Assembly (NCBI RefSeq): GCF_019320115.1
Contig: NC_089584.1
Span: forward strand, 109,013,799 to 109,077,798
Direction of reading: 5' to 3'
Source: Miscanthus floridulus
Taxonomy: Eukaryota > Streptophyta > Magnoliopsida > Poales > Poaceae
Length of the DNA stretch: 64,000 bases
In this document: piece by piece, positions 16,654-64,000 of the stretch
Layout of the letters: every line of letters begins with the position of its first letter
Position numbering within the stretch: position 1 is the first letter of the stretch
Made by a program: the position numbers and the translations under genes
The notes under the pieces: model-generated
Database searches by the model: none
Told to the model about the DNA's origin: nothing
The model's input: only the letters and a program-made list of their open reading frames with translations

Positions 16654-19403
16654 ATGGAGCGTGGCTCTCCCTCTCGTCGTACGTGGGCGAATGAGGTCGA
16701 CGAAGCCGAGTCGCTTTCTCGTTCCCCGTCGGCTAGCCTCAACCCTGACGCAGAGCCCTTCTCACCGGCCGCCTCGGGGTTTGGCAGGGGTAAGAGATTG
16801 TCCTTCACCGACTCAGAGGCTTCCTTTGGCTCAGAGGCGCCGAGCCCTGCCACCGCGGGAAGGGGCAAGGAGCCTGCACCAACCAAGGGCCATTGTAGGA
16901 GACCATGCTGTCGCCGCCCTTTTGCGTCGGCAGGGGGGCCTCATGGCCGACGCATGGTGCACCTACCGTAGTGCTGGTGTGGCCTCCCCACCTCCCACCA
17001 GGAGGCTCCGTTCTTTCGTCGTCCACCCGGCCAGGTTCTCCGCGGAGCCAAACTCTGACAGATTCCGCCAAGTCCACGGCCATCATCGATGGCGTCGCAG
17101 GGCGTCCCCTACTCTGGCTAGGCCGGTGCCGGCGGACCTCGTCAGCCTGTGTTTCAATTGCCTGGGGGATGACCATGTCAAGGCTGACTGCATGTTCCGG
17201 TCACGTTGCCGCACCTATCGTCATGAGGGCCATCGTGCGTGCAACTGCCTGCAGGGCCCGCCCACCTTGGCGGGTGCCAAGAGGGGACATTCGCCCGCTG
17301 GTGCTGGCGGCCACTGCGGTGCATTCCGGAGGCGGGTTTCCTAGAGCGGTGGCATGCGGCCACGGTGGCCATGATTTCGGCCCGCTCCCAGTCAATTGGC
17401 CGGTCGCCATTGGTAAGCCTGGGCGTTCGGGTTACCCGATTTTTTCGGGTTGGGTAATTCGGGTAATTCAAAATTCGGGTAATGAAAATTGCTACCCGAT
17501 ATTACCTCCGAAAAAACACTACCCGCAAATTCGGGTACCCGATAATTCGGGTTCGGGTTCGGGTATTACCCGATATACCCAAATTTACAGAAAACAACAA
17601 ACTACACTAAATTTCAGTAGCGATCTATGCATAATTTCAGCAGCAATTTGTTTAGAATTTCAATAGCAATTTGTAGTGAATAATATATTACAGTCACTCA
17701 TTCAAATAGAGAGAATTATATTCTAATAAAGTGATAAGTTAAATGGTTCAGCTAACAACACATGATAAATACAAAGACAAAAACAAATCTTTGGGTAGTT
17801 CGGGTAGTTTGGGTACCGGGGGATATTACCCGAATTACCCAAACTAATTTCGGGTAATAAAAATCGCTATCCGAATTTGGTGTCGGGTACCTCGGGTTCG
17901 GGTAATTCGGGTCCGGGTTCGGGTAATTCGGGTACGGGTAATGGGTATCGGGTATTTTGCCCAGGCTTAGCCATTGGTGTCCCAATGCTATGCGCCTCCC
18001 AGCCCGGACGCTGTTGAGCAGCCGGCACCAGAGGTGGTCGAGCGCCCGGTGCATTGCGAGGGGACTAACGCCGGTGGCCAGGCCGTGATGGAGGGCGCCC
18101 ACTAAAACATCATGGAACCACCCGCGCAGACACTCCCGGTCGATGCGGTGTGGGCTGGTGTTGGGCTGTCCTCTTGTCCGCACCTACAACTCCAGTGTGA
18201 TCGTCAGTGGCGCCTAACTGAGCGGCGCCTGACTGAGATCGATCGCCCATCTATCAAGGTGGTTGTCGTGCCCCGCTCCAATGAGATCCAGGCAGCGGAG
18301 AATGCGCTCTCTCTGGCTTTGGTGGCCTTGATTGGCGGTACTAGGCCTCTTGTCATGCCGGCCATGGTACGAGACCACCTACGTGCTCGGTTCCACATCA
18401 ATGATGCGACAATGTCAGTGATGCGCCATGCCCCTAAGGACTTCATTGTCTGCTTCGGTCATAGAGAGGACCTTGAGCAGGTACTCAACGCCTTGCCGGA
18501 GGGGTCGGCGCCTTTCTCTCTCACTTGGCGGCGCTGGATGTAGCTTTCTAGGGCTACAGCTGCTTCATTCATGTTTAGGTTGCTCATCAGAATCAAGGGT
18601 GTCCCTGCCCACGCCCTCAGCGAGGCCATCGCGCAGTAGCTCCTTGGGTCATCATGCGCCCAGGTCCAACTCGCTTCATCCGACGCTGACGAAGTTGAGG
18701 ACTATGATGCCAGAGAGCTCTTTGTCGCCGCATGGTGCCTGCATCCACTATTGGTCCCTGAGTAGAAGCTCCTTGTCATCCCAGAGCCGCTGGAGCCGTA
18801 TGACCCAAGCATCCTGTTCCTCAGGGAGCACGACATCATCCATTCGCATTTGCCGATCCTGCATTATCTTGCACGGATGCGAGTCGGTGAGTAACAAGAC
18901 TGGGATGTGTCGTCGAGCTCGTCGGATGATGACTTCCCCGGCGTGCATGACTCCAACGACAGTGGCGATAGCAATTTCAATGGTTACCACCCGGGTATCG
19001 ACGGGCCTTCTAGGTCACGGTTGTTTGGCCTAGCCACTTTCCGGTCGGCTGGCGTGGACGGTGGACCATTGCTTGGCAGGGGCTCTGGCCTGGCATTCCG
19101 GCCGCGGTAGCGACGACTGTCGTGTGCATCGCCGCCCGACGTCGGTGAGGCCACAAGGCATGCATGCAAGGTCGACTTAGTGGAGATGGAAATCTGGTGG
19201 TCCCCCAATCTGTACCAGATGGTACATGAGGGCCGCTGCTCGCTTGGTGGTAGGGCCTGGTCCTGGCGTGGCATCCGTCGATACAGCCATGTCTCCCTAT
19301 GGTGCGAGATCCTAGACGTTGCATCGCCTGGGCGACAAGATTGAGATCGCGCGGCGCCCATACCAAAGCCATCACCTATGTCTGACGCTGGGAAATAGGC
19401 GGT
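16654..19403 (+). pseudogene. LINE ORF1 (RNA-binding, CCHC knuckles), first part, interrupted
   Basis: ATG 16654 opens a Ser/Pro-rich N-terminus (MERGSPSRRTWANEVDEAE). A frameshift near 16960 moves the reading to the frame of 16661. A CCHC array follows at about 17150-17240 (CFNCLGDDHVKADC, then CRTYRHEGHRACNC). The frame is split by the hAT element at 17414 and resumes at 17970. A conserved grass-LINE block reads VVVVPRSNEIQAAENALSLA, then MRHAPKDFIVCFGHREDLEQ, FSLTWRRWM and RELFVAAWCLHPLLVPE. Several in-frame TAG/TGA codons interrupt it. ORF1 proteins of L1 elements bind the element RNA. Copia-1 cuts the ORF at 19403, and later pieces lie at 24874-24936, about 30362-30589 and 32977-33560. 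Confidence 0.75.
17414..17969. mobile_element. hAT-type nonautonomous element with GGGTA-rich ends
   Basis: 556 bp. The terminal inverted repeat TAAGCCTGGGC is perfect over 11 bp, and the 8-bp GCCATTGG is duplicated at 17406-17413 and 17970-17977. Long subterminal arrays of (T/C)GGGTAATTCGGGT on one side and ACCCGAATTACCC on the other can pair. The AT-rich middle has AATTTCAGTAGCAATTTGT-like repeats. There is no coding capacity. Confidence 0.88.
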
Positions 19404-19820
19404 TGATAGACTTCTAGGACCTCTAGGTGCAGATCAGTGGAGAAATTCTTAACTTAGATAAGCAGACTTGGTAATATACCTCGTCGAGTGTAGTTGTGGC
19501 CGTGGCGCCACCAACAAGGTGTAGGGAAAGCCATGCAGGCATCCGCTAGGTCGTCGACAGTAGCAACAGCATAGGCGCAGACCAGTGGCGACGGTGAAGA
19601 CGGTGTGGCGCCCTTCTAGATTAGACTAGGGCTAGGAACCTCGGTGGGGCGCTGGCGGCTATGGTAAACCTCGTACCTTGTGTCCTGGCCTCCACCTTCG
19701 TCTTTATAGTGCTGCATGATGGGGGCCCATTAGCCAAGAGAACGGCTGGGCACCCCCGATCAGGGCGCGGATCAAAGGCCCAATTGACCATTGGGCCAAC
19801 TGGTGGAGATCAATCTAACA
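19404..19820 (-). repeat. 3' LTR of copia element 1
   Basis: 417 bp, TG...CA. It lacks short segments present in the other LTR (454 bp). A polypurine stretch (CAAGGGGAAGAA on the minus strand) abuts it at 19821-19835. Confidence 0.85.
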
Positions 19821-24406: not shown

Positions 24407-24418
24407 GCTCTGATACCA
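24407..24418 (-). other. Primer-binding site of copia element 1
   Basis: TGGTATCAGAGC on the minus strand, one base from the 5' LTR (24420-24873). It is complementary to the 3' end of initiator methionine tRNA, the usual plant copia primer, and fixes the element's orientation. Confidence 0.9.
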
Positions 24419-24419
24419 T

Positions 24420-24873
24420 TGATAGACTTATAGGACCTCTAGGTACAGATTAGTGGGGAAATTCTTAACTTATATAAGTAGACTTGGTAATGTACTTCGT
24501 CGAGTGTAGTCACGGCCGTGGCGCCACCAACAAGGTGGCCATGACGTGTCGGCGTAGGGGAAGCCATGCAGGCACCCGCTAGGTCATCGATGGTAGCAGT
24601 AGCATAGGCGTGGACCAGTGGCAACGGTAAAGGTGGTGTGGACTTCTCGTCGCTTACAGCGCGCCCTTCTAGATTGAACTAGGGCTAGGAACCTCGGTGG
24701 GGCGCTGGCGGCTACGGTGATCTTCGTATCTTATGCCTCGGTCCCCACCTTTCTTTTTATAGCGCTATGTGATGGGGGCCCATTAGCCAGGAGAATGGCT
24801 AGGCGCCCCTGATCAAAGCATGGATCAAGGGCCTAATTGACCATTGGGCTAACTGGTGGAGATCAATCTAACA
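24420..24873 (-). repeat. 5' LTR of copia element 1
   Basis: 454 bp, TG...CA, in direct repeat with 19404-19820. The sequence between it and 24937 (24874-24936) is a short piece of LINE ORF1. Confidence 0.85.
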
Positions 24874-33833: not shown

Positions 33834-34348
33834 TGTTGAAATAAAACTTAGAAATAACAGGACCTTAATCTTAGCCTAAGCATGATTACTAACTCAAACT
33901 TATGGGGAATAGATCTTAGTGACTAACCAGAGTCCATAGATGCCATCTGATGCCTCTATGCTTGATGTAGAAGTTGATAAAGATGAAGTAGATCTTAGTC
34001 TTGACCAGATTTGGGGCTTGATGCTCCTAGTTGGTGAAGAACGCGATGTAGATCTGCAACAATACTTGGACATGGGTAGATGGCCTTCCTAGACCCTCCA
34101 GCGCCTAATTGACCGGTTATGTGAATAGTCATAGGGATTAGAGAGCATAATAACGCCAGGGGTGCTTCTTTATTTATAATCGCACTGTGGGTCAGGGGGG
34201 CGAACCCTTAGAATTCTAAGGGTTGCCACTGATCATGACAGTTCTTATTTAGTTGGATATTAATGACGAGTGGTGGACCAAACAAATGCAATGTTTAATT
34301 AATCTTGTAATTAAGTTTGGGATTAGCCGAACCAATCACATTCCAACA
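33834..34348 (-). repeat. 3' LTR of copia element 2
   Basis: 515 bp, TG...CA. On the minus strand a purine-rich AGTGGGAGAA immediately precedes it (34349-34360), the expected polypurine tract. Confidence 0.88.
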
Positions 34349-39892: not shown

Positions 39893-39904
39893 GCTCTGAT
39901 ACCA
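39893..39904 (-). other. Primer-binding site of copia element 2
   Basis: TGGTATCAGAGC on the minus strand, two bases from the 5' LTR (39907-40430). It is complementary to initiator methionine tRNA and confirms minus-strand orientation. Confidence 0.9.
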
Positions 39905-39906
39905 GT

Positions 39907-40430
39907 TGTTGAAATAAAACTTAGTTATAATAGGATCTTAATCTTAGCCTAAGCAGAGTCCGTAACATGATCACTACTCAAATTTATGCGGAATAGATCT
40001 TAGTGACTAACCAGAGTTCGTAGATGCCATCTATGCCTCTGTGCTTGATGTAGAAGTTGATGTAGATGAAGTAGATCTTAGTCTTCATCAGATTTAGGGC
40101 TTGATGCTCTAAGTTGGTGAAGAACGCGATGTAGATATGCGACAGTACCTGGACGTGGGTAGATGGCCTTCCTAGATCCTCCAACGCCTAATTGACTGGT
40201 TATGTGAATAATCACATGGATTAGAGAGCATAATGATGCCAGGGGTGCTTCTCTTATTTATAATCGCGCCGTGGGCCACGGGACGAACCCTTAGAATTCT
40301 AAGGGTTGTCACCGATCATGACAGTTCTTATTTAGTTGGATATTAATGATGAGTGGGTGGACAAAAAAACTTAACGTTTAATTAATCTCATAATTAAGTT
40401 CGGGATTAACGAACCGATCACATTCCAACA
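39907..40430 (-). repeat. 5' LTR of copia element 2
   Basis: 524 bp, in direct repeat with 33834-34348 and clearly similar over its whole length. ACGTC follows at 40431. Confidence 0.88.
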
Positions 40431-48844: not shown

Positions 48845-50860
48845 ATGACCACGGAGGAGGCACGGATCCAATCTACGTCGACCACTACTTCACCGGCATC
48901 AGCTACGGCTCCGACCACGCTGGACCTAGCTCCGGCCATACCAGCATCGTCTTTAGCCACGTCGACAACCCGTCGTTCGCTTCCTCGCTACAAAGGGAGA
49001 CAGATCGACAACACCGACCTACTCGACTCCATCGATCGGGTCGGCACCAAGCTTGCTGAAACCCTACCTCTGGTAGATTCGATTCAAAATCAACCTACCG
49101 AGCAGGTAACCACTACCCACAATAGATCTACCCGACCAGCTCGGGCCAGTCGTCCTACACGACTCGGTACGGATCTCATGGTCACATCTAATCCTGAAGG
49201 GCGCTCCGTTCGTCGCCGACCAGACCCCACAACAGGTCTCCGGCTCTCCGAGTGCAAAGCCTCGATGGAGAACTACCAGGCTCAGCCCTACGGCCTGCGA
49301 AACACTGCTTCCAACTACGCGCATAATATACAACGCTACTCGGATCTGTGTTTTATACATCGACCTCGGCCAAAACCACGCAACTTCATCAACATGGTTC
49401 GCATCGAGGAGTATCAAGAAGGATCGGTCCACACAGTTCAAGAGGGCGGTTCAAGCTCCCCGTCCAGCATCGCATCTATTGGCTCCGTCCACACTGAGCT
49501 CCAGCGTCGTGACAATGAAGAAGTTGAATACGATCTGGATATCCTAGACCACTCCCTGGGTTTCCCATGATTCCCATCTTTCCCACCAAGGCGAGAAGAC
49601 TTGATCAATGTCGTCAGTAATGATGAACCACCGGTAGTTGGTGAAACAGAACAAGAAAGGCTAGCACGCGAAGCACACAATATTGACCGGTTTAATCACA
49701 GACAAGCCGAAGCCGAGGCAGAAGAGGAGGCACGACGCATAAGGTTCCAACCACGCGATCTCAACAATGCCTTTGATAGGGTAGGGGAAAAGCAGGTCTT
49801 CAGGACTCCAAGTGCCAACGTAGCTGTTGCTATGGTGATAATGCAACAACTACCCAATACCCCAGAAATCTAGGCAATTCGTGATGATGTACAAGCCTAC
49901 CTGACGGCTGCTATAGCTCAGACCGCAGAGATTGCAAACCAAGTCCGGGCTCCGTCCGTCTCAGTCGAATTAAGCCGCAGTCGTCAGTACTCAAGTCACC
50001 CATAGTGACCCAACCAACGTGGCTCGCGCAACAACGACCCACCAGACAACCATCAAGGTGGAAATGGTGGTCATGATGGTGGTCGGGATGACAACCGCCG
50101 CAACAACCAGGACAATAATTGACGAGACAACCGCTACAATTGCCGTGATAACCACGGTCGCAGGGTCAACCAGGGTGGCAATCGGGATCGCTGTGACGGC
50201 AATAACGATCTCTGCCATTCCCTCGGAGAACATGATCTGCGCGATCGCATTAACCAAAGAGCCAACGATCATGCGTCCCATGAAAGCTATCATCGTATAG
50301 AATATGATACTACCCACAGCCCTCCGGGTTTGAAGTAGTTTACTCCTCACCTTCGCCAAGTCGTATGGCCCAAAAACTTCAAGCTCAAAAAACTCCAGAA
50401 GTACGACGGCAAGGAGAACCCTGAGTTATGGGTTATGCTCTATGAAACCACGTGTAGATCAACCATGGCTGATGAGCACGTCATGTCTAATTACTTCCCA
50501 GTCGCCGTCGGCCATGCAGGCCACCAATGGCTGGTTAGCTTGCCGGCGAACTACTTTGATTCTTGGCAAGAGCTAAAGCAAGCATTCATCGACAATTTCA
50601 TTGCTACTTGCGAACAACCTGGCAACAAATATGATCTGCAGCGGATTCGAGATCACAAAGATGAGCCACTACATGAGTACATCCGACGCTTCTCAGAGAT
50701 ACGCATCAAGGTCCCGTCAATCTCCAACAACAAGGCAATCAAAGCTTTCATCACCGGTCTCCGCTTCCACGATGTCCTAAGGGACAAGCTCCTCCGAAAA
50801 AGACCTGAATCGGTCACAGCGCTCCTAGCCACTGCTAAAAAAATATGCGGATGCCGATGA
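48845..50860 (+). pseudogene. Tat-type gag, interrupted
   Basis: One frame from 48845 to 50860 with stops near 49568, 49871, 50002 and two more at about 50120-50340. The N-terminal part is Ser/Thr-rich and unstructured. The middle (about 50005-50330) is an Asn/Asp/Arg/Gly-rich low-complexity stretch. The Retrotrans_gag domain occupies about 50370-50850, with PVAVGHAGHQWLVSLPANYF, then SWQELKQAFIDNFI, LHEYIRRFSEIRIKVP and NKAIKAFITGLR. Gag forms the particle. No frameshift is needed within it. Confidence 0.8.
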
Positions 50861-51134
50861 TGCTAAAAAGATAATCATCGAAGAAGCAGCAAGGGTTCCA
50901 CACTCCGACCACCCCCCACACCGCGATGACTACCGTGGCAACCGTGGTCGGAACGACAATTTTGATCGCCGCAACCAGCGCAACAATTCCCGTGACCACC
51001 ACGACCAGCGTAATCAGTGGCGTAATCGCCATGACGATTACAGGGGCAAGCGTGCTCGGGAAGACGACGATGAAGTCAACACCGTTAAAAAAGGTGGCGA
51101 GCGTCGCAACTACGAAGAAGACTACGCCAAAGCA

Positions 51135-53704
51135 GTGAAAGGACCCTGCCAGCTCCATCCCAAGTCAAACCATACCATAGAGAATTGCCGTGTTCTCAAA
51201 TCCATCTACACGCGCCAACAGGCTCTGGATAAATCCGATAAGCCTAACGACGTAGGGGAGCAGCATAGTAAGGACAACGATGATGAAGACATAGATCCCC
51301 ATCACAAGTACATCAAGCCAACCGACCGCGTCCACACCATCATTGGGGGCAGAGTGTCCATCGGGACCAAACGAGAACGCAAGCTGCTCGCCCACGCTTG
51401 CTTGAACGTGGCCAATACCGACAACCTCATCGTCGATCCACGGCTCTCTCCTTGGTCTCACCGCGAGATCTCCTTCAGCAGAAAGGACCAATGGGCTGCA
51501 ATACCTAAGCCAGGGCATTTTCCTCTGGTTCTCGATCCTTGTATCAATAAGGTTCAGTTCGATAGAGTGCTGATTGACAGCGGCAGTTCCATCGATATAC
51601 TGTTCAAGAACAGTTTGCCAGCCCCGAAGATAACCTAGGCTGATCTCAAGCTATACGAGGCATAGTTCTGGGGTGTTCTCCCCGAACAGAGCTCCACACC
51701 TCTCGGGTAGATCACGCTGCCTATGCAATTTGGTACCCCAGACCACTTCCGCACTGACTACGTCAACTTCGTGGTCGCCGACTTCGAAGGCACCTACCAT
51801 GCTATCCTCGGCCGATCAGCGCTCACCAAGTTTATGGCCATACCTCACTACAGGTATTTGGTGCTCAAGATGCCTACCGAGAAGGGGGTTCTAACTCTCA
51901 AGGGCAACGTATACGCAGCTTACACCTGCGAGGATGACAACTTCAAAATAGCAGAGGCTCACGACCTCTCTATTCGCATGGCCGAGACCACGCTCGACGC
52001 CAAGCAGACCCCAGCCGACCACCTGGAGATCCTAGAGCTCGAGGCCCCACGCAAGAACATCAAGTCCAAAGAGCACAAAGCGATCCAGTTGGTCGACGGT
52101 GATCCCAGCAAAATAGCCCTTATTGGGGCCAACCTGGATCCTAAATAGGAAGACACGCTCGTCAGATTCTTGAGGAGCAACGTGAGTGTGTTCGCATGAA
52201 AACCCGCTGACATGCCCGGTGTACCTCAGAACTTGATCGAGCACTCCTTAAATGTTGATGGCAAGGCCAAACCCATCAAGCAGAAGCTACGACGATTCAC
52301 TCGTGACAAAAAAGAGGCTATCAGGGTAGAAGTTACACGGCTTTTAGCAGCCGGATTTATCAAAGAAGTGTATCATCCAGAGTGGTTAGCCAACCCGGTT
52401 CTTGTACGCAAAAAGAACAATAAATGGAGAATGTGCGTTGATTACACTGATCTCAATAAACACTGCCCTAAAGACCCCTTCGGCTTACCTCACATAGATG
52501 AGGTCGTAGATTCAACTATCAGTTGCGAGCTGCTTTCCTTTCTCGATTGCTACTCTGGTTATCACCAGATCACTCTCAAAAAGGACGACTAGATCAAGAC
52601 ATCTTTCATCACGCCCTTCGGCGCCTACTGCTACATGACCATGTCATTCAGGCTCAAGAACGCTGAGGCTACCTACCAACATGCCATATAGGCCTGCCTC
52701 AAAGACGAGATAAAAGATGATCTCGTTGAGGATTATGTTGACGATGTAGTTGTTAAAACCAAGGAAGCATACACCCTTGTTGACAACCTAGAACGTACCT
52801 TTGCAGCCCTTAACACATTCCAATGGAAATTAAACCCAAAGAAGTGCATCTTTGGTGTTCCATCTGGTATATTGCTCAGCAACGTCGTTAGTCACGACGG
52901 CATATGCCCTAACCCAGAGAAGGTAAAAGCTGTCTTGGACATGAAGCTGCCTAAAAAGGTGAAGGATGTTCAGAAGCTTACCGGATGCATGGCTGCCCTC
53001 AGTCGTTTCATATCAAGATTAGACGAAAAAGGACTACTGTTTTTCTAGCTGCTCAAAGCATCCGAGAAGTTTGAGTGGTCGAAGGAAGCAGACGTTGCCT
53101 TTACATAGCTGAAACAATTCCTTACATCACCTCCGGTCCTTACTGCTCCTAGAGAAGACGAAACCCTCCTGCTTTACATCGCAGCAACTAATCGAGTGGT
53201 CTCCACTGCCATGGTGGTCGAGCGCGATGAGCCCAACCACATCTACAAGGTACAGCGACCAATTTATTTCATCAGTGAGGTGCTCAATGAATCCAAGACC
53301 AGGTACCCACAGATTTAGAAACTGATCTATGCCATACTAATCACATCCCAAAAGTTGAAACACTACTTCGACGGATATCGTGTGGTGGTCATGACTGAGT
53401 ACCCTCTGGGAGACATCATTTGCAACAAGGATGCAAATAGGCGCTTTGTCAAATGGGCAATGGAGCTATGCCCTTTCTCCTTGGAATTTGCAAGCCATAC
53501 TACAATCAAGTCTCAGGCACTTGTCGATTTCATCGTCGAGTGGACAGACTTAAGCACACCTGCCTCTCAGGGGCCCGCCAAGTATTGGAAGATGTACTTC
53601 GACGGCTCTCTCAACATCGATGGCGCAGGAGCAAGAATCCTTTTCGTATCACCATCCAAGGAGCAGCTCTGATATGTCCTCAGGATTTATTTCCCGGCGT
53701 CTAA
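51135..53704 (+). pseudogene. Tat-type protease-RT-RNase H, interrupted and truncated
   Basis: Frame +1 relative to gag. CQLHPKSNHTIENCRVLK (near 51147) is the linker seen before Tat proteases. LIDSGSSIDILF (51572) holds the protease active site. RT has VLVRKKNNKWRMCVDYTDLN (52388), LSFLDCYSGYHQITL (52534) and VEDYVDDVVVKTK (52727, YVDD-type catalytic site). The RNase H region has LYIAATNRVVSTAMVVER (53173). The start of the second, archaeal-type RNase H of the Tat lineage is at KMYFDGSLNIDGAGARIL (53589). Stops are mostly TAG (near 51636, 51663, 52146, 52590, 52689, 53047, 53106, 53319), with TGA near 52197 and 53670. Confidence 0.82.
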
Positions 53705-56700
53705 TGTAATACCCTAGGTGTTAGCCTTGCATAACTTGACTTGCATAGCATGAGCATGATCATAAAGCATTCATATATAAGCTTTGACACTTGAAACATT
53801 TGATTGAAATATATGCAACATTCTTATTATTTTATGTTTCCATATGTATATGCATATGATCATGAGTGTAAACACGTAGATGATTATGTGACCTTGCAAA
53901 TAGCTTAAACATGTTTAGAATATCATCATGAACAACTTTGGTATTTATGGCTAGGGCTAATTAGGTCATTATGTCATAGTTCAAGTATGTACCATCTTTT
54001 GAATGTAGCATGTTTGACCAAGTTTGAACGATGTGCTAGAGACTATGCATGTATGTGATCACTAAAACAAAGTTGTAGTATTTGTCATGGGGAACAACTT
54101 TTATCTTTGGGTCATGAACTAATAATGTGCACCGCTGCCCTGTTTCGAGTCACTGACGCGTGGGGTCCCCTGACCAGCGGGTCCCACCGGTCAGCGACTC
54201 TGTAGTTGAAAGCTAGGTCATTTGATTCTAGTTTTTGAATTGTTTTGTGATTTTTTTATCTTCAGTTTGGTAGCTTCAAAAATTGTGTAATAAATTGTGT
54301 AGTGTTCCTTAGGAAGTGTAGTATTTAGGAAAAATATATTCTTGACATTTACAATAGAAGTTTTAGGAGATTTAAATAGAGATTTGAAATGTGTTTTTGA
54401 ATACATGCAAATTTGTTTATTTTATATCTAGAGTTCCTGTGCTCCAAAAATTATGAAATTTTTGTGGTAAGCTAGTATTAACATATATGAACTCTAGTAA
54501 AAATTTGAGGATCAGTGCATGTGTAGATTTGTAGTTATAGATTTTTCTTTTATAAATAGTAAATCCTTGTTTGAATTTTTATAAATTAGTTTTGAATCCA
54601 AAATTCATGAAATTTATTGGGGGTAATCCTAGTACCATAAGGATGCTAAAAAAATAGGAAATCTATTGCTTGACACTTTTCACTAGGGTTTTCTATTTAT
54701 GCTACTTTAAGCCTTTCTGTCTTGTCATTTTTGTATAGAGTGTTTTATTGAATGAAATGGTATGAAACTTTTACAGTAGTCCTTTGATAGCATTAGTAAG
54801 GCACTGTAAATTTTTAAGAATTTTTGATGCACATTTGATATATGTTTATTATTTAACCTAAATATCTAAATAAAATAATAAAGGCATTTAAATAAATAGT
54901 TTGGGCTTCACCATTATATTGTCTTGAATGTTTTTGGCATGCTTAAACTGTTGGTAGGATTTATGTTGTCAAATTTTGAGTGATTACATGAAGTAGAAGT
55001 ATTGTTGCTTTAAAATGCAAATTTAAAAGGATTCCGGACAGATTCTGTAGTTTGACAAGTTGCATGATAGGGATGATGTTTGCTGTAAAAATGGTTAATA
55101 ACAATGTTGTAGAGAATTTGATAAGCTTTCCAGAAAGTCCAGGATCACTGCATTTGGATTAGTAGAACTCTAGTTATGAGTGAAACAAGTAGCTACTATT
55201 TTGTGATATAGTAGATGTATTGTGGAAGTAGTTAATTAAATAATCGAGAAGAGATATGCACCTACTCAATAAACATGACGCACTTGTTAACATATATGCA
55301 TTCGTAATACTTATGCCATATTCATGCATCTAGGATCGGAGGAAGAAATAACATTGCTGGAATTCGAAGAAGCAGAGGAAGGGGACCAGCAGGAGAATCC
55401 TTAAGCCGCAGCTCCCGAAGGCGTGGAGCAGAATCCTGAAGAGCTTCTGGAGTGTCCTGACCACCGCCCCACTTCCTTTCTATGAGGCAAGCCCTAGAAC
55501 ATTCTAAATCTCTCAATATTTTACAAATGTTTACTTAAGTACTTATGATTGATGCATTAAGTTATAAGAGTTGAATGGAACCACTTGGTGCATGTACATT
55601 CCTTGTCCAGATATTACACCTTTAACCGGTATAGGTCCAGGATCGAATATATGCTTAGCCATGCTTAGACCAGTAGAAGTCGGGTGATGTCCTGTCACCT
55701 GCGAGATATAGATGGATACCGGAGCATGGTTGGCTATATTTGCTATCGTGGAACAGGACCATGGGGTAAAAGAAAATCGAGACCGGGCGAGATGTCGATA
55801 GAGAAGCAACAAGATATGGAGGTCTTGGATGTGGATCTATCCCCATCTGTGTCGATTAAGGACCGTACCATTGTTGGTGCTTCTGACAAGATTGAACGCA
55901 TACCTCTCACTTAGCTGGCCAGATAACTCATTCCGACTGCGAAGCCGAGTAATTCAACTTAGGTCAGGACCCGTTCTGTTGTGTGCTCCTTCCGGGGAAT
56001 GATCAGACTAAGCCCAAGGGCAGGCTAGGCCTGAACGTCCTGGCATCTGGTGTTCTAGATTGTGCGGCGCGGTACGGACCCGTGAAATGTAGACCTGAGT
56101 TGTATCAAAGGTGACCTAAGGCTATCATAGCTGATAGACCTAGGTTTATGTTAGGAATAAATTCCCAGCTGGTTGAAATTGATTCGAATCGCTGTCTCTC
56201 CCGGATAGTGAGAAACTTGGCTAGTCCCAACATCATAGTAACTATGTTATGAAACATGATGGTTCGGATGAATATGAAATTACAATACCTGCTATGGTTA
56301 CTATTGTATGCTTTTAAATTGATATACCACATGTTTGGCACAGGATAGTTGCTAATCTAGAAATGGATAGTTATAATTAACTTGATAAAGGAATTGTAAT
56401 TATACAATGAGTCAATTGCCTTTATGCAAAATGTTGTCGAGTTATGTCCACCTATACAGCCTTGCATAATCCTTGGAGTCATTTTATTTCTGGTTCATGA
56501 CGGGTAAGTCTAGCTGAGTACCTTCTCGTACTTAGGGTTTTATTTCCCATTGTTGCAGATAGCACTATGTATCATGGTTATTGCAAGAGTTGCTTCTATC
56601 CCATCATGGATGAGGAGTAAGCCTTGGGCAGGCTTCTTTATTAATCCCTATCTTTGCTTTTATGGACCATGATCCTACTTGGCACTGTATCAAATTATGT

Positions 56701-57751: not shown

Positions 57752-58675
57752 ATGGCACACACAAAGTAGACCGCTCGCAAGTCCACCGGAGGCAGAGCTC
57801 CCAGCCATCAGCTTGCTCCACGTACTCGTCAACGTCACACGTTTCTTGGAGAGTTTGGGATGTCTACACTCTTGTGGAGAGTGCTTAGCTATGTAGACTA
57901 TCCTGATGGAATGGAGCCCCGCTACTTCTAGGCGAATGAGCAGTTGGGGGAGGGTCTCTTGGTTACTATGGAGGCCATTGTTCGTCTCCGAGGTGACAAT
58001 TCTGAGTGGACAGGTTGGTGTTATGAGTCAACTAGCAGGACTGCTGAAGAAGCAGCTGGCAGGGCAGCCTTTGGGATCCTGAGGGATATCATGGATCGTT
58101 TTCCTCAGGAGCTGGCAGCCGCTTTGGTTGGAGTCTTTCCAAGGGGCAACCCCTCCACTAACTCATGGCAGCAGGCAAGAGGAAGATCTTTGGAGATTGG
58201 TGCAGTAGAAGGGCAGAACAGTGATAACTCTACCATGAGCGCCATGTTCACAGTGATGAAGGTGTTAGATGGAGTAGAAGGTAGCCTCAGACATGTGTCT
58301 AGTGCTCTTGGTCATGCCCGTGAGGACCGACGTCAGCTTCAGAGGGAGCACGACGCTAAGATTGAGAGGCTCAATTTAGAGATGGCTCAGTTAACTCACT
58401 AGAGGAATGCAGCCTGGTCTAGGGAAGATGTTCTGAGAGCTCGATAGTTTGAGCTGGAGCAGCAGCTGGTCAATGCGAAAGAATACAATGATAACCTACA
58501 TGAAGAGGTTCATCAGCTGAATAACCAGCTCCACCCTTATGTTCCGCCTGGAGCCACAGAGATGGATCCAGAGGAGGACGAGGAAGAAGAAGAAGTGGAG
58601 CCTGAAGAAGAAGTGGAGCCTAAGGAAGGAGATGATCCTACGTCTAACCTCGATAGTGATCATGATGAGGATTAG
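57752..58675 (+). pseudogene. Upstream ORF of the chromovirus with histone H3 tail-like N-terminus, coiled coil and acidic tail
   Basis: 307 codons plus a terminal TAG (58673-58675), interrupted by TAG at 57767, 57929, 58400 and 58445. After Met the first residues are AHTK-stop-TARKSTGG, then RAPSHQLA. Against plant histone H3 they match A1, T3, K4, T6, A7, R8, K9, S10, T11, G12, G13, A15, P16, Q19, L20 and A21. The stop sits at Q5, K14 is Arg, and R17-K18 are Ser-His. No histone fold follows. Next come a region of unknown fold with FGMSTLLWRVLSYVDYPDG and WTGWCYESTSRTAEEAAGRA, a coiled coil (about residues 165-265), and an acidic C-terminus with runs of Glu. I infer a retrotransposon accessory protein, not a histone. 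It is in frame with gag-pol but separated by 366 bp. Confidence 0.8.
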
Positions 58676-59041
58676 ATCGCTTAGTACTTAGTGGAAGGGC
58701 CAATGTATCACCATTATTCATGTAATGGACCTATAGCTCAAATTTGGTAGTAGTAATCCGACTATCATGTAATGTTGTTAATCGCACGACTATCGCATAT
58801 TTGGTTGAACATCAATGCAATTCTAGTCCTTTGTTGGTGATCACGATTTAAATTTGCATGCGTTATGAGCGCGATAAGTGGTCAAATTAGGGATGTCATG
58901 TTACAAGAATGAATTGTTATGCCTCTGTTTTTATTGTGATTTTGAGAATTTTCTCCAATAATTTCAGTTTGGCATAAGTACATAATTCATCTACAATCTC
59001 TTGACATCAACCAATAATCACTTATTGTTGCAACTTCACAG
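58676..59041 (+). other. Spacer between upstream ORF and gag-pol
   Basis: 366 bp, AT-rich, with stops in all frames. It could hold a promoter, splice sites or a translation-reinitiation region for gag. No clear signal is visible. Confidence 0.5.
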
Positions 59042-62000
59042 ATGATGCACACCCATGCTGGAGCTGGTGGCAGCCAGGATGGCAACCATGATGACTTGCC
59101 ACCCCCACCGCCGCCGTCCGCTCAGGAGTTCTTTACCTAGTTCCTAGGGAGCTAGAGGACAATGGAGGAAGCTTTGTGCCTCATCGTGCAAAACACCGCT
59201 CGTGGCCACCCACATCAACCAGGGGCCGAGCCAAATCAGCATAGTACATTCAAGGAGTTTCTGGATACGAAGCCTCCAATCTTCAAGGTGGCTGAGGAAC
59301 CACTGCAGGCTAATGAGTGGCTAAATACCATTGAGCAAAAATTTCATCTGCTGAGGGTCACGGAGCATCTGAAAGCTGAGTATGCTTCTCATTAGCTGCA
59401 AGGACCAGCAGGGATCTAGTGGACACATTTCATGTCGTCTTTGCCTGCTAACGCGTGAGTGACCTAGGAACAGTTCAAGCTGACTTTTAGGGGTCATCAT
59501 ATTCCCCCGGGCTTGATGCGCATGAAAGCCGCTGAATTTATGAGGGTCACTCAAGGAATAAAGACTCTCACAGAATATATGCACGCATTCAACAACCTGT
59601 CCAGATATGCTCCAAGTTTTGTGGATACTGAAGAGAAAAAGACAGAGAGTTTTAAGCGAGGTCTGGGTACCAAACTGATGAAGACCATGGCTAATTCTAG
59701 GTGTGCCACGTACAATGAGTTTATTAGTGATGCCTTGACCCAAGAAAACCACAACAACATGCATGCCGTTGCTAAGGGTCGCAAGAGGGCATATGAGGCA
59801 GGTGCCTCAGGATCTTCCTAGTCGAAAGCGCCTATCATAGCTAGGCCACAATTCCATCCACCTGCACCTAAGTTTAGGCCTCCACCACCTAAAGCTTAGA
59901 ATAACAGGCCACAGAAACCATTTCGTAAGGCGTTCACTATTGTCTTACCAAAAGGAACTGGCAGTTAGGGAAGCTCCACTAGACTGAGGAATAATCAGCC
60001 ATGTTTCAACTGCAACCAAATGGGTCATTGGGCCAAGGAATGCTCCCACCCCAAGAAGAATGGCAACCCAAATCAGAACAATCAGAGGCAGGCAAACACA
60101 AGGGCATGTCTGGGATACATGCATTATACCGTTGTTGAGGAAGTGCTCGCTGGAGAAGTTGTCATGACTGCTATGTTTCTCGTCAACAAGCATCCCACTA
60201 TTGTTTTATTTGATTCGGGAGCTTCTCATTCATTTATGAGTCAAGCATTTGCATCTAGACATGATCAAGAAATAATTGAAGTAAGCAAAAGGGATTATAA
60301 CATAAGTTTAGCATGGGGTACTGTTACTACTAAAAAGATAGTAAAAAATGTACTCATCTCTATACAAGGGAGGGAGTACATAACAGATTTGATAATATTG
60401 CCCGGGTTATCGATAAGTGTAATCTTAGGCATGAATTGGATGAAGGATCATGGTGTTCTTATTGACACTAGCACCCGCACTATTATGTTGAGGGAACCCA
60501 TGAGAGGGAATGCTTTTCTAGTACCACTCTCCCGCAATTTTGAACTCCAACATTTAGCTTGTGCTATCCAAACCACCACACTTTGTGATATCCCAGTGGT
60601 TTGTGAGTTTCCGGATGTATTTTTAGAGGAATTACCAGGCTTACCACCTGATAGGGAGGTGGAATTTAAGATTGAATTAGTGCCAGGTACGGCACCCATA
60701 TCCAGAAGGCCCTATAGAATGCCATCCAATGAGTTAGCGGAACTTAAGGTTCAATTACAAGATCTATTGAACAAGAGTCTTATCCAACCTAGCTCATCCC
60801 CGTGGGGATGTCTAGCCTTGTTTGTGAAAAAGAAGGACAAGTCACTGAGAATGTGTGTAGATTACAGACCACTCAATGCTATGACCATTAAGAACAAATA
60901 TCCATTGCCTTGCATCTACATCTTGTTTGATCAGCTAGCGAAGGCAAAGGTATTCTCCAAAATTGACTTGAGATCAGGTTACCATCAGATAAAGATCAGA
61001 CCGGAGGATATACCTAAAACTGCTTTCTCCACTAGGTACGGCTTATACGAGTATTTGGTTATGTCTTTCGGACTAACAAATGCTCCAGCCTACTTCATGT
61101 ACCTGATGAACTCGGTATTCATGCCCAAACTTGACAAGTTCGTAGTCATGTTTATCGATGATATATTGATTTATTTAGAAAATGAGTCAGATCATGAAGA
61201 GCATCTAAGGATTGTTTTATCCAGATTGAGGGAGCATAAGCTATATGCGAAGTTTAGCAAATGTGAATTTTGGTTGAGCAAAGTACCTTTCTTAGGTCAC
61301 ATCTTATCAAGAGATGGAATCTCTGTAGACCCATCAAAAGTACAAGAGGTCATGGATTGGAAAGCCCCAACTTCGGTTCATGAAGTTTGGAGTTTTCTCG
61401 GGTTAGCAGGATATTATCGTAGTTTTATTCCAGATTTTTTAAAGATAGCTAAGCCTATGACCAGACTACTTTAGAAAGATAAGAAGTACAAATGGACACT
61501 AGAATGTGAAGCAGCTTTTCACACCCTCAGAACTTTGTTGACTACAGCACCTGTGCTGGCACAACCAGACATTGAAAAGCCTTTTGATGTATTTTGTGAT
61601 GCATGGGGAATAGGTTTGGGATGTGTGCTTATGCAAGAAGGAAGAGTTATTGCATATGTTTCTCGGCAATTGAGAAAACATGAAGTCAACTACCCTACAC
61701 ATGATTTAGAACTTGCAGCAGTTGTTCATGCATTAAAGATATGGAGACATTATTTGTTGGGCAATGTATGTCATATATATACTGACCACAAAAGTCTCAA
61801 GTATATCTTTACCCAGCCAGAACTAAACATGAGACAACGAAGATGGTTAGAATTGATTAAGGACTATAATTTAGAAGTGCATTACCATCCGGGTAAAGCT
61901 AATGTAGTAGCAGATGCACTCAGTCGAAAGTCTCATTACAACACTACACGAGCATTATTGGAAGATGGATTCAACTTGTTACATCCTGTTGTACTACACA

Positions 62001-63451
62001 ATATCACGATCAGTTGTTCACTTGAGAGCAAAATCATAGAGCTACAACAGATAGATGTAGGAATAAGTCACATCAAGAGAAAAATGAAAGAGCAAGAAAC
62101 CAAACATTTTAGATTAGACGAAAGAGGTGTATTATGGTTTGAGGACCGACTTGTGGTACCAAAAGACCGTGAGCTAAGGAATCAAAGTTTAGATGAAGAT
62201 CACTCGTCCAAATTGTCCATCCATCCAGGTACTAGTAAGATGTATCAATATTTGAAAACCCATTTTTGGTGGACTAAGATGAAGAAAGAGATCGCAGCCT
62301 ATGTTGCTAGGTGTGATAACTGTAGTAGAGTAAAAGCTGTCCATATGAAATCTGCTGGACTACTTCAGCCATTGCCTATTTCAGGATGGAAATGGGAGAA
62401 AATCAGTATGGACTTTATCACAGGCCTTCCAATGACGCCACAAGGTCACGATTCAATATGGGTTATTGTTGATCATCTCACCAAGTCAGCACACTTTATA
62501 CCCGTGAACACACGGTATATAGTTGGGAAATACGCGGAGATATATGTTTCCTAGATTGTGAGACTACATGGAGTACCTAGGACTATAATCTCAGATCGAG
62601 GACCACAATTCATAGCTCGTTTCTGGGAGCATTTACACCAGGCTTTGGGAACCAAGCTGATCAAAAGTTCAGCATACCATCCGCAAATTTTAGGACAGAC
62701 AAAGCGAGTGAACCAAATCCTAGAAGATTTACTTAGAGCTTGTGTTATATCTTTAAAGGGTTCGTGGGAGAAATGGTTACCTTTAGCTGAATTCTCCTAT
62801 AACAATAGTTATCAAGCGAGTATCAAGATGGCTCCATTTGAAGCCTTGTATGGCAGAAAATGTAGAACTCCATTGAACTAGATTGAGCCCGGTGAAAGGA
62901 GATACTTTGGTATTGACTTTATCAATGAAGCCGAAGAGCAAGTATGTATCATCCAACAACATATTAAGGTAGCTCAATCAAGACAAAAGAGTTATGCCGA
63001 CAGAAGAAGACCACTGACTTTTGAAGTAGGTGACTATGTATACTTGAGAGTATCACCCATGAAAGGTGTGAAAAGATTTGGGATGAAAAAGAAGCTTTCA
63101 CCAAGATATGTAGGGCCATACAAAATTTTGGAACAAAAAGGAAATGTTGCGTATAAGTTACAACTTCCACCAGAAATGAGTGCAATATTTGGTGTGTTCC
63201 ATGTTTCTCAGTTGAAGAAATGTCTTTGAGTACCTAAAGAAGCTATTGCACCCACCAATGTACAGCTTCAATCGGATTTGACCTATGAGGAAAAGCCAAT
63301 TCGAGTATTAGAAGAGCTAGAAAGAGTAACACGGAGTAAGATTATTAAGTTCTATAACATGGTGTGGAATAATCACAGTGAACAAGATGCTACGTGGGAA
63401 AGAGAGGATTATTTATGAGAAGTTTATCCCGCCTTTTTCCAAGAATGGTAG
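59042..63451 (+). pseudogene. Chromovirus gag-pol polyprotein with C-terminal chromodomain, 14 premature stops
   Basis: 1,469 codons plus stop in a single frame. Gag: KPPIFKVAEEPLQANEWL, then MRMKAAEFMRVTQGIKTLTE. Zinc knuckle [14 protein letters not shown] (60003). Protease active site [12 protein letters not shown] (60207). [37 protein letters not shown] and FIDDILIY (61151). RNase [20 protein letters not shown] and [10 protein letters not shown]. Integrase: zinc finger HFWW to CDNC, then [13 protein letters not shown] and SDRGPQFIARFWEHL. Chromodomain at 63283-63415. Internal stops: TAG at 59138, 59153, 59393, 59417, 59465, 59819, 59897, 59966, 61472, 62552 and 62879; TGA at 59456, 63227 and 63416; no TAA. 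No frameshift is seen. Dead as read, but otherwise complete. Confidence 0.9.
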
Positions 63452-63479: not shown

Positions 63480-63494
63480 ATAAGGGGGAGGGGC
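63480..63494 (+). other. Polypurine tract of the chromovirus
   Basis: ATAAGGGGGAGGGGC immediately before the 3' LTR, the plus-strand priming site for reverse transcription. Confidence 0.85.
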
Positions 63495-64000
63495 TGTAAC
63501 ACCCTAGGTGTTAGCCTTGCATAACTTGACTTGCATAGCATGAGCATGATCATAAAGCATTCATATATAAGCTTTGACACTTGAAACATTTGATTGAAAT
63601 ATATGCAACATTCTTATTATTTCATGTTTCCATATGTATATGCATATGATCATGAGTGTAAACATGTAGATGATTGTGTGACCTTACAAATAGCTTAAAC
63701 ATGTTTAGAATATCATCATGAACAACTTTGGTATTTATGGCTAGGGCTAATTAGGTCATTATGTCATAGTTCAAGTATGTACCATCTATTGAATGTAGCA
63801 TGTTTGACCAAGTTTGAACGATGTGCTAGAGACTATGCATGTATGTGATCACTAAAACAAAGTTGTAGTATTTGTCATGGGGAACAACTTTTATCTTTGG
63901 GTCATGAACTAATAATGTGCATAGCTTATTCTTTTGGAGCTCACAAAAATCATCAAGTCAACAATTTTCAACATAGCCAATTCTGCTAAGTCTTGTACCC
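63495..64000 (+). repeat. 3' LTR of the chromovirus, partial
   Basis: The first 427 bp (63495-63921) match the 5' LTR with six substitutions. From 63922 the sequence is unrelated to the 5' LTR, either because something is inserted here or because the two LTRs differ structurally. The window ends at 64000. Confidence 0.8.

What the first reader, a model, noticed from the sequence alone, without database searches (positions are those of the whole stretch)
57752..57820. Retrotransposon ORF that begins with a histone H3 tail mimic
Seen directly: the upstream ORF of the chromovirus starts with a sequence matching 16 of the first 21 residues of mature histone H3, in register and with no gaps. It keeps K4 and the T6-A7-R8-K9-S10-T11-G12-G13 core. 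K14 is conservatively Arg, and the internal stop falls exactly at Q5. Known: the H3 tail is the substrate or ligand of K4 and K9 methyltransferases, demethylases, HP1-like and CMT3-type readers. No histone fold follows; a coiled coil and acidic tail do. Inference: the protein could act as a decoy or scaffold for host chromatin enzymes, or tether particles to reader proteins, so that the element interferes with or exploits H3K9-directed silencing. I cannot rule out that this ORF family has been noticed before.
Basis: partly seen in the sequence, partly recalled or inferred. Interest (0 to 1): 0.93.

Follow-up and report, generated by a model that had tools for sequence, protein, structure and literature searches.

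The report
Retrotransposon protein with histone-like tail
A jumping gene in a plant genome carries an extra protein that begins with a near-copy of the tail of histone H3, and many related proteins keep that tail while the rest of the protein changes, which suggests that these elements use it to deal with the plant's gene-silencing machinery.

Summary
The ORF at 57752 starts MAHTK*TARKSTGGRAPSHQLA, 16 of 21 identical to histone H3 without gaps; the next best stretch in six frames of the window matches 9. It is the extra 5' ORF (ORF0, 5'aORF) of a Ty3/gypsy element with LTR starts at 53705 and 63495; this copy is broken. All 149 relatives analysed, found with tail-bearing queries, have a similar tail. 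Lysine at the H3 K9 site is Lys in 148 of 149 and never Arg, although the K4 site is Arg in 87. Tail identity averages 80%, body 43% (45 pairs of 10 representatives). Constraint centres on K9 more than K4, and the half after G12, less H3-like, is at least as fixed. A dsRBD-like domain lacking the canonical lysines precedes the coiled coil. Ten literature searches listed no report of the tail. Best mechanism (inferred, untested): a coiled-coil multimer showing H3K9-like tails to host H3K9 enzymes or readers. Rivals: import signal, ligand of the element's own chromodomain, tether, nucleic-acid constraint. No DNA of relatives was reachable, so dN/dS was not done.

The parts
53705..54131 (+). start of the 5' LTR (TGTAATACCC...); its 3' end was not determined
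   Evidence: 421 of 427 bases identical to 63495-63921
57752..57823 (+). histone H3-like N-terminal tail of ORF0, with a TAG at H3 position 5
   Evidence: 16 of 21 H3 identities; the 60 listed PDB matches are all H3 or variants; similar tail in relatives
57752..58675 (+). ORF0 / 5'aORF, broken in this copy by four in-frame TAG codons
   Evidence: translation, stop count, homologues
57860..58135 (+). dsRBD-like domain (alpha-beta-beta-beta-alpha), matching residues 1-92 of relative P0001
   Evidence: tblastn of P0001; AlphaFold2 of P0001 with alignment A4; PDB fold matches
58229..58549 (+). long coiled coil ending in the LHEEVHxLxxQLHP motif
   Evidence: model of P0001, helix 124-266; alignments A1 and A3
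58562..58672 (+). acidic C-terminal tail of ORF0
   Evidence: translation; the matching end of P0001 is low-confidence without secondary structure
59042..60013 (+). gag, broken by nine in-frame stops (8 TAG, 1 TGA)
   Evidence: Pfam Retrotrans_gag in 59513-59821, E 2.3e-6
60020..63226 (+). pol: protease, reverse transcriptase, RNase H, integrase and integrase SH3-like domain, with in-frame stops
   Evidence: Pfam; stop count for 60020-63415, 3 TAG and 1 TGA
63230..63415 (+). chromodomain-like C-terminus of integrase (recognised by eye from recall, no Pfam match)
   Evidence: translation; Pfam search gave no chromodomain
63482..63493 (+). purine-rich tract just before the 3' LTR
   Evidence: sequence AAGGGGGAGGGG
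63495..64000 (+). start of the 3' LTR, cut by the end of the window; agreement with the 5' LTR ends at 63921

Best explanation
The ORF is the ORF0 (5'aORF) of a Tekay/Retrosat-2-like chromovirus, and its N-terminus is a conserved histone H3 tail mimic. Shown: the H3 match, the slow change of the tail, Lys at K9 in 148 of 149 relatives, and, in the model of a relative, a coiled coil and a dsRBD-like domain. Inferred: in working copies the coiled coil assembles ORF0 into multimers that display several H3-like tails, and these bind or are modified by host proteins that read or write H3K9. The effect would be to compete for, or locally redirect, the H3K9me2/CHG-methylation silencing that keeps such elements off. 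The tail most likely arose by capture of the first ~22 codons of a host H3 gene (also inferred; no DNA comparison was possible).
For: H3 match far beyond chance and specific in PDB searches with three tail types (H3 or H3 variants in all 60 listed rows of each; best E 1.1e-5, 0.0044 and 0.043). P0026, from the window's own subfamily, matches H3 at 18 of 21. Among 149 tails: K9 is Lys in 148 and Met in 1, never Arg, while K4 is Lys 59, Arg 87, other 3; T6 146, T11 143, G12 136, S10 134, R8 133; position 5 is free. Lys-only at one site beside Lys/Arg exchange at another argues for lysine-specific recognition. Of 146 tails covering H3 1-12, 139 match at 8 or more of 12. Tail 80% against body 43% identity. 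Coiled coil of P0001 mostly at pLDDT over 80.
Against: No binding, methylation or expression data. The part after G12 (P-x-G-V-P-R-H-Q-L-A-P-R) is at least as invariant as the H3 core and only partly H3-like, so an H3K9 role does not explain all of the constraint. A7 is Gln in 37, S10 is not Ser in 15 and residue 1 is Pro in 65 of 149; with clusters weighted equally S10 falls to 0.70. This may hinder some H3 readers. 28 of 149 database proteins carry longer N-terminal extensions and 8 start inside the tail, so a free tail is not certain. Ascertainment: queries and profile held the tail, and only the best 120 of 2474 matches were listed. Six of the 32 hits begin at an in-frame Met after the tail. 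A sunflower Tekay 5'aORF protein is reported to have no amino-acid similarity to the grass ones (PMC11728184, section 9), so the tail is probably not general to Tekay. No dN/dS.
Confidence: 0.4

Rival explanations
1. The H3-like tail is a nuclear import signal: importins that carry H3 also carry ORF0, and perhaps the particle, into the nucleus.
For: The tail is basic. The grass Tekay 5'aORF proteins examined in PMC11728184 were predicted nuclear (section 9 read). That importins recognise the H3 tail is recalled, not tested.
Against: Import signals usually accept Arg for Lys (recalled), yet K9 is never Arg in 149 rows while K4 is Arg in 87. The neutral residues T6, T11 and G12 are also kept.
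Confidence: 0.2
2. The tail is a ligand made by the element for its own integrase chromodomain, tying ORF0 to the pre-integration complex.
For: Type II chromodomains of plant chromoviruses lack most of the methyl-lysine cage and their partners are unidentified (PMC6317226, passages read). The window has a chromodomain-like end at 63230-63415.
Against: No co-variation test was possible. Pfam does not recognise a chromodomain in this piece. Retrosat-2 homologues outside grasses are reported to lack ORF0 (PMC3485330).
Confidence: 0.12
3. The conserved start reflects a nucleic-acid signal near the 5' leader (packaging, dimerisation, translation), and the H3 resemblance is a relic of a captured exon without a protein role.
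For: The tail is at the very start of the first ORF, in a region where RNA signals are common in such elements (general knowledge).
Against: At the protein level K9 is fixed as Lys while K4 switches between Lys and Arg and positions 5 and 14 are free. RNA constraint itself could not be tested without DNA of relatives.
Confidence: 0.13
4. The tail is an integration tether: it joins H3 readers so that particles insert where those readers gather, with no anti-silencing role.
For: Chromodomains of such elements are reported to target heterochromatin (PMC12786077, passages read). Tail and coiled coil would suit a tether.
Against: The integrase end already offers targeting. No insertion-site data here.
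Confidence: 0.12

Closest known systems
ORF0 / 5'aORF of Retrosat-2, RIRE3, RIRE8, maize Tekay and sorghum Sb7 (Gao et al. 2012 PMC3485330; PMC11728184)
   Same: Sense ORF between 5' LTR and gag-pol of a Tekay-type chromovirus; evolves faster than gag-pol; long helix and alpha/beta part in grass members; DRBM-like structure reported for the maize and sorghum proteins.
   Different: Neither paper mentions a histone-like start: 'histone' occurs 0 times in both main texts. I did not fetch their ORF0 sequences, so direct homology with my families is not shown.
Viral histone H3 mimics such as SARS-CoV-2 ORF8 (PMC10141009, passages read)
   Same: A short H3-like stretch around an ARKS core in a parasite's accessory protein.
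   Different: In ORF8 a six-residue internal motif (ARKSAP); here some 21-24 residues in register at the N-terminus, in a retrotransposon family, on a coiled coil.
VANC anti-silencing proteins of VANDAL DNA transposons (PMC12859917, passages read; VANDAL aORFs also in PMC11728184)
   Same: Accessory protein of a plant transposon that counters silencing (for ORF0 only proposed).
   Different: VANC systems are described as DNA-sequence-specific; in ORF0 I found no known DNA-binding domain, and it carries an H3-like tail.

Membership tests
Tekay/Retrosat-2-type chromovirus ORF0 (5'aORF) | Sense ORF between 5' LTR and gag-pol | tested here: met
   ORF0 57752-58675, gag from 59042, pol 60020 onward, LTR starts at 53705 and 63495
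Tekay/Retrosat-2-type chromovirus ORF0 (5'aORF) | LTRs longer than 3 kb with TGTCACACCC start | tested here: inconclusive
   LTR starts TGTAATACCC and TGTAACACCC (8 and 9 of 10); 5' LTR end not found; no TGGTATCAGAGC-like site directly before the ORF
Tekay/Retrosat-2-type chromovirus ORF0 (5'aORF) | Integrase with C-terminal chromodomain | tested here: inconclusive
   Chromodomain-like by eye at 63230-63415, Pfam silent; integrase SH3-like domain met, E 1.5e-25
Tekay/Retrosat-2-type chromovirus ORF0 (5'aORF) | Placement in the Tekay clade by reverse transcriptase tree | not tested
   no reference RT set was fetched
Histone H3 | Histone fold after the tail | tested here: not met
   No Pfam match in the two ORF0 pieces tried; relative P0001 models as dsRBD-like domain plus coiled coil
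Histone mimic proteins | H3-like sequence around a modifiable lysine in a non-histone protein | tested here: met
Histone mimic proteins | Motif-dependent engagement of histone enzymes or readers | not testable with these tools
   needs biochemistry
dsRNA-binding domain (dsRBD) | alpha-beta-beta-beta-alpha fold | tested here: inconclusive
dsRNA-binding domain (dsRBD) | Canonical lysines (KKxAK, recalled) at the start of the last helix | tested here: not met
   Absent in 10 of 10 relatives printed

The most novel reading that the evidence does not exclude
ORF0 of this subfamily is a two-armed anti-silencing protein carried by an LTR retrotransposon: multivalent H3K9-like tails occupy the H3K9 methylation loop, and a dsRBD-like domain without RNA-binding lysines engages DRB/DCL-type partners of the small-RNA arm. 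The core (tail plus coiled coil) is shared by a large set of related proteins, so histone mimicry would be a common strategy of plant retrotransposons.
Probability: 0.15. Interest if true: 0.95.

Novelty: new variant of a known kind. Interest (0 to 1): 0.82.

Why it matters
5'aORFs of grass Tekay elements have been known for years without a function. A conserved H3-like tail at the start of such ORFs gives a concrete, cheap test: ask which plant chromatin proteins bind or methylate the peptide. If they do, histone mimicry, so far described in viruses and other pathogens, would extend to abundant plant retrotransposons and bear on how such elements persist under H3K9me2/CHG silencing. It could also identify the missing partner of type II chromodomains.

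Tried and rejected
Chance: rejected (expected 2e-11 in the window). A free-standing H3 gene or pseudogene: rejected, no histone fold and the body has ORF0 homologues. A K4-centred mimic: weakened, because K4 is Arg in 87 and residue 1 is Pro in 65 of 149. DNA of relatives for dN/dS: four viral-contig scans and two genome-contig scans gave no relative. The host genome search (genome search 'own') was busy at all seven tries. Chromodomain by Pfam: no match. The Retrosat-2 terminal repeat TGTCACACCC, with one mismatch, occurs 3 times in the window against 3.15 expected; the similar LTR start rests on the LTR pair, not on that scan. A single-sequence model of P0001 was poor in its first 140 residues; I used the one made with 18 sequences. 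On the six hits that start at MPTLLWRVL: I suppose that bacterial gene callers chose this Met because GGAGAG precedes it in the window; this is a guess.

Literature: 10 of 10 searches listed no paper whose title or abstract start reports an H3-like start of a plant retrotransposon ORF; I looked into seven papers by passages or sections, none in full, and read no supplements. The library holds open-licence papers only; the main 5'aORF survey (Steinbauerova et al.) is known to me only through citations and may have noticed it.

Full report
What is there. The frame at 57752 reads MAHTK*TARKSTGGRAPSHQLAPRTRQRHTFLGEFGMSTLLW.... Against mature H3 the first 21 residues match at 16 places without a gap. 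Scanning all six frames of the window, the next best 21-residue stretch matches at 9, 30 Markov-simulated windows reached at most 9, and the binomial expectation of 16 or more is 2e-11. A search of PDB sequences with the first 36 residues gave 131 matches; the 60 listed are all histone H3 or H3 variants, the best with E 1.1e-5.

Element. Bases 53705-54131 and 63495-63921 are 421 of 427 identical and mark the starts of the two LTRs; a purine tract stands before the second. After the 5' LTR start come ORF0 (57752-58675), gag (59042 onward) and pol with protease, reverse transcriptase, RNase H, integrase and integrase SH3-like domains. A chromodomain-like end at 63230-63415 is recognised by eye only; Pfam has no match. 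The 5' LTR end was not found, and no TGGTATCAGAGC-like primer-binding site lies directly before the ORF. Position and order are those of the ORF0 or 5'aORF of Tekay/Retrosat-2-type chromoviruses, described as upstream of the gag-pol ORF in Gao et al. 2012 (PMC3485330, passages and sections 10 and 14 read) and in PMC11728184 (passages and section 9 read). Clade placement by tree was not tested.

State of this copy. In-frame stops: ORF0 4 of 4 TAG, gag 8 of 9, pol 3 of 4, together 15 of 17 TAG, against 30% TAG among the plus-strand stop trinucleotides of the window (P about 1e-6). TAG is what C-to-T change in CHG context yields from Gln and Trp codons, so this copy seems to have decayed while CHG-methylated (inference). 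It is broken.

Relatives. With the window ORF (X at stops), 32 proteins reach E 0.001. Two of the 32 show the tail: P0026, from the same subfamily, with MARTKQTAHKSTGGRAPRHQLAPRTRQ inside a longer and frameshifted reading, 18 of 21 H3 residues, and P0025, from a shorter family. Six of the 32 (P0001, P0002, P0004, P0005, P0016, P0020) begin at MPTLLWRVL, an in-frame Met just after the tail; the other 24 begin further down or, in P0024, are joined to an integrase end. Searching with P0025 gave 36 proteins at E 0.01, P0025 itself included; a profile of 16 rows gave 2474 at E 0.1 with candidates capped, best 120 listed, 113 of them new. In all 149 proteins of these two lists (36 and 113) a tail could be located. 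Rows were located by an HxLA-like motif, so His and Leu there are fixed by construction, and the searches themselves favoured tail-bearing proteins.

Conservation. Of 149: K9 Lys 148, Met 1; T6 146; T11 143; T3 137; G12 136; S10 134; R8 133, with 8 His, 7 Cys and 1 Ser; A7 95 with 37 Gln; K4 Lys 59, Arg 87, Glu 2, Met 1; residue 1 Ala 67, Pro 65; position 5 free. K9 is Lys in 36 of 36 rows and 112 of 113 new rows. With 22 clusters at 80% identity weighted equally, the majority residue averages 0.84 over the 24 tail columns and 0.61 over 166 body columns; K9 and T6 stand at 0.99-1.0, S10 at 0.70, A7 at 0.64, K4 at 0.58. Over 45 pairs of 10 representatives tail identity averages 80%, body 43%. 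The half after G12 (P-x-G-V-P-R-H-Q-L-A-P-R) is at least as fixed as the H3 core, and in the 149 rows has one residue more than H3; the window subfamily (window and P0026, GGRAPxHQLAPR) has H3's spacing and is closest to H3. PDB searches with two other tail types again list only H3 or its variants in the 60 rows shown, more weakly (best E 0.0044 and 0.043). 113 of 149 database proteins start with Met and at most one residue before the tail, 28 have longer extensions, 8 start inside it.

How it may work. The fixed Lys at K9, beside Lys/Arg exchange at K4, suggests recognition of that lysine itself. A coiled coil would display several tails at once. Plant LTR elements are held silent by the H3K9me2/CHG-methylation loop (established knowledge), so I think the most likely role is to engage H3K9 writers, erasers or readers, as decoy or local recruiter: about 0.4 for the whole statement, about 0.9 for the identity of the ORF and the reality of the mimic. 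Rivals are import signal, ligand of the element's own type II chromodomain (whose partner is unidentified according to PMC6317226, passages read), tether, and nucleic-acid constraint. Against generality: the sunflower Tekay 5'aORF protein is reported without amino-acid similarity to the grass ones.

Known or not. Histone mimicry is known in viruses (PMC10141009, passages read). In the main texts of PMC3485330 and PMC11728184 the word histone does not occur. The passages seen of PMC12786077 do not tie histones to aORFs, and the 2026 review PMC13317346 has neither 'histone' nor 'aORF'. Ten literature searches listed no such report. I therefore call it a new variant of a known kind, with the caution that most subscription papers were not searched.

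Noticed in passing
57752-63415: 15 of 17 in-frame stops of ORF0, gag and pol are TAG (P about 1e-6), a sign of C-to-T decay in CHG context, although the LTR starts still agree at 421 of 427 bases.
   Followed up: partly
33834-34348 and 39907-40430: A repeat pair at 87.5% identity with a perfect TGGTATCAGAGC on the minus strand at 39893-39904, probably another LTR element in reverse orientation.
   Followed up: no
19403-19820 and 24419-24873: A second repeat pair at 80% identity with TGGTATCAGAGC on the minus strand at 24407-24418, probably an older LTR element.
   Followed up: no
50435-53672: Open frames that by eye look like gag and reverse transcriptase of another retrotransposon end directly before the 5' LTR of this element.
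   Followed up: no
P0024 (database protein, Miscanthus floridulus): An annotated plant protein joins an integrase end to the coiled-coil and acidic end of ORF0.
   Followed up: no
P0038 (database protein): A protein filed under a Candidatus Saccharimonadales MAG carries the ORF0 tail and body, so that contig is probably plant contamination.
   Followed up: no
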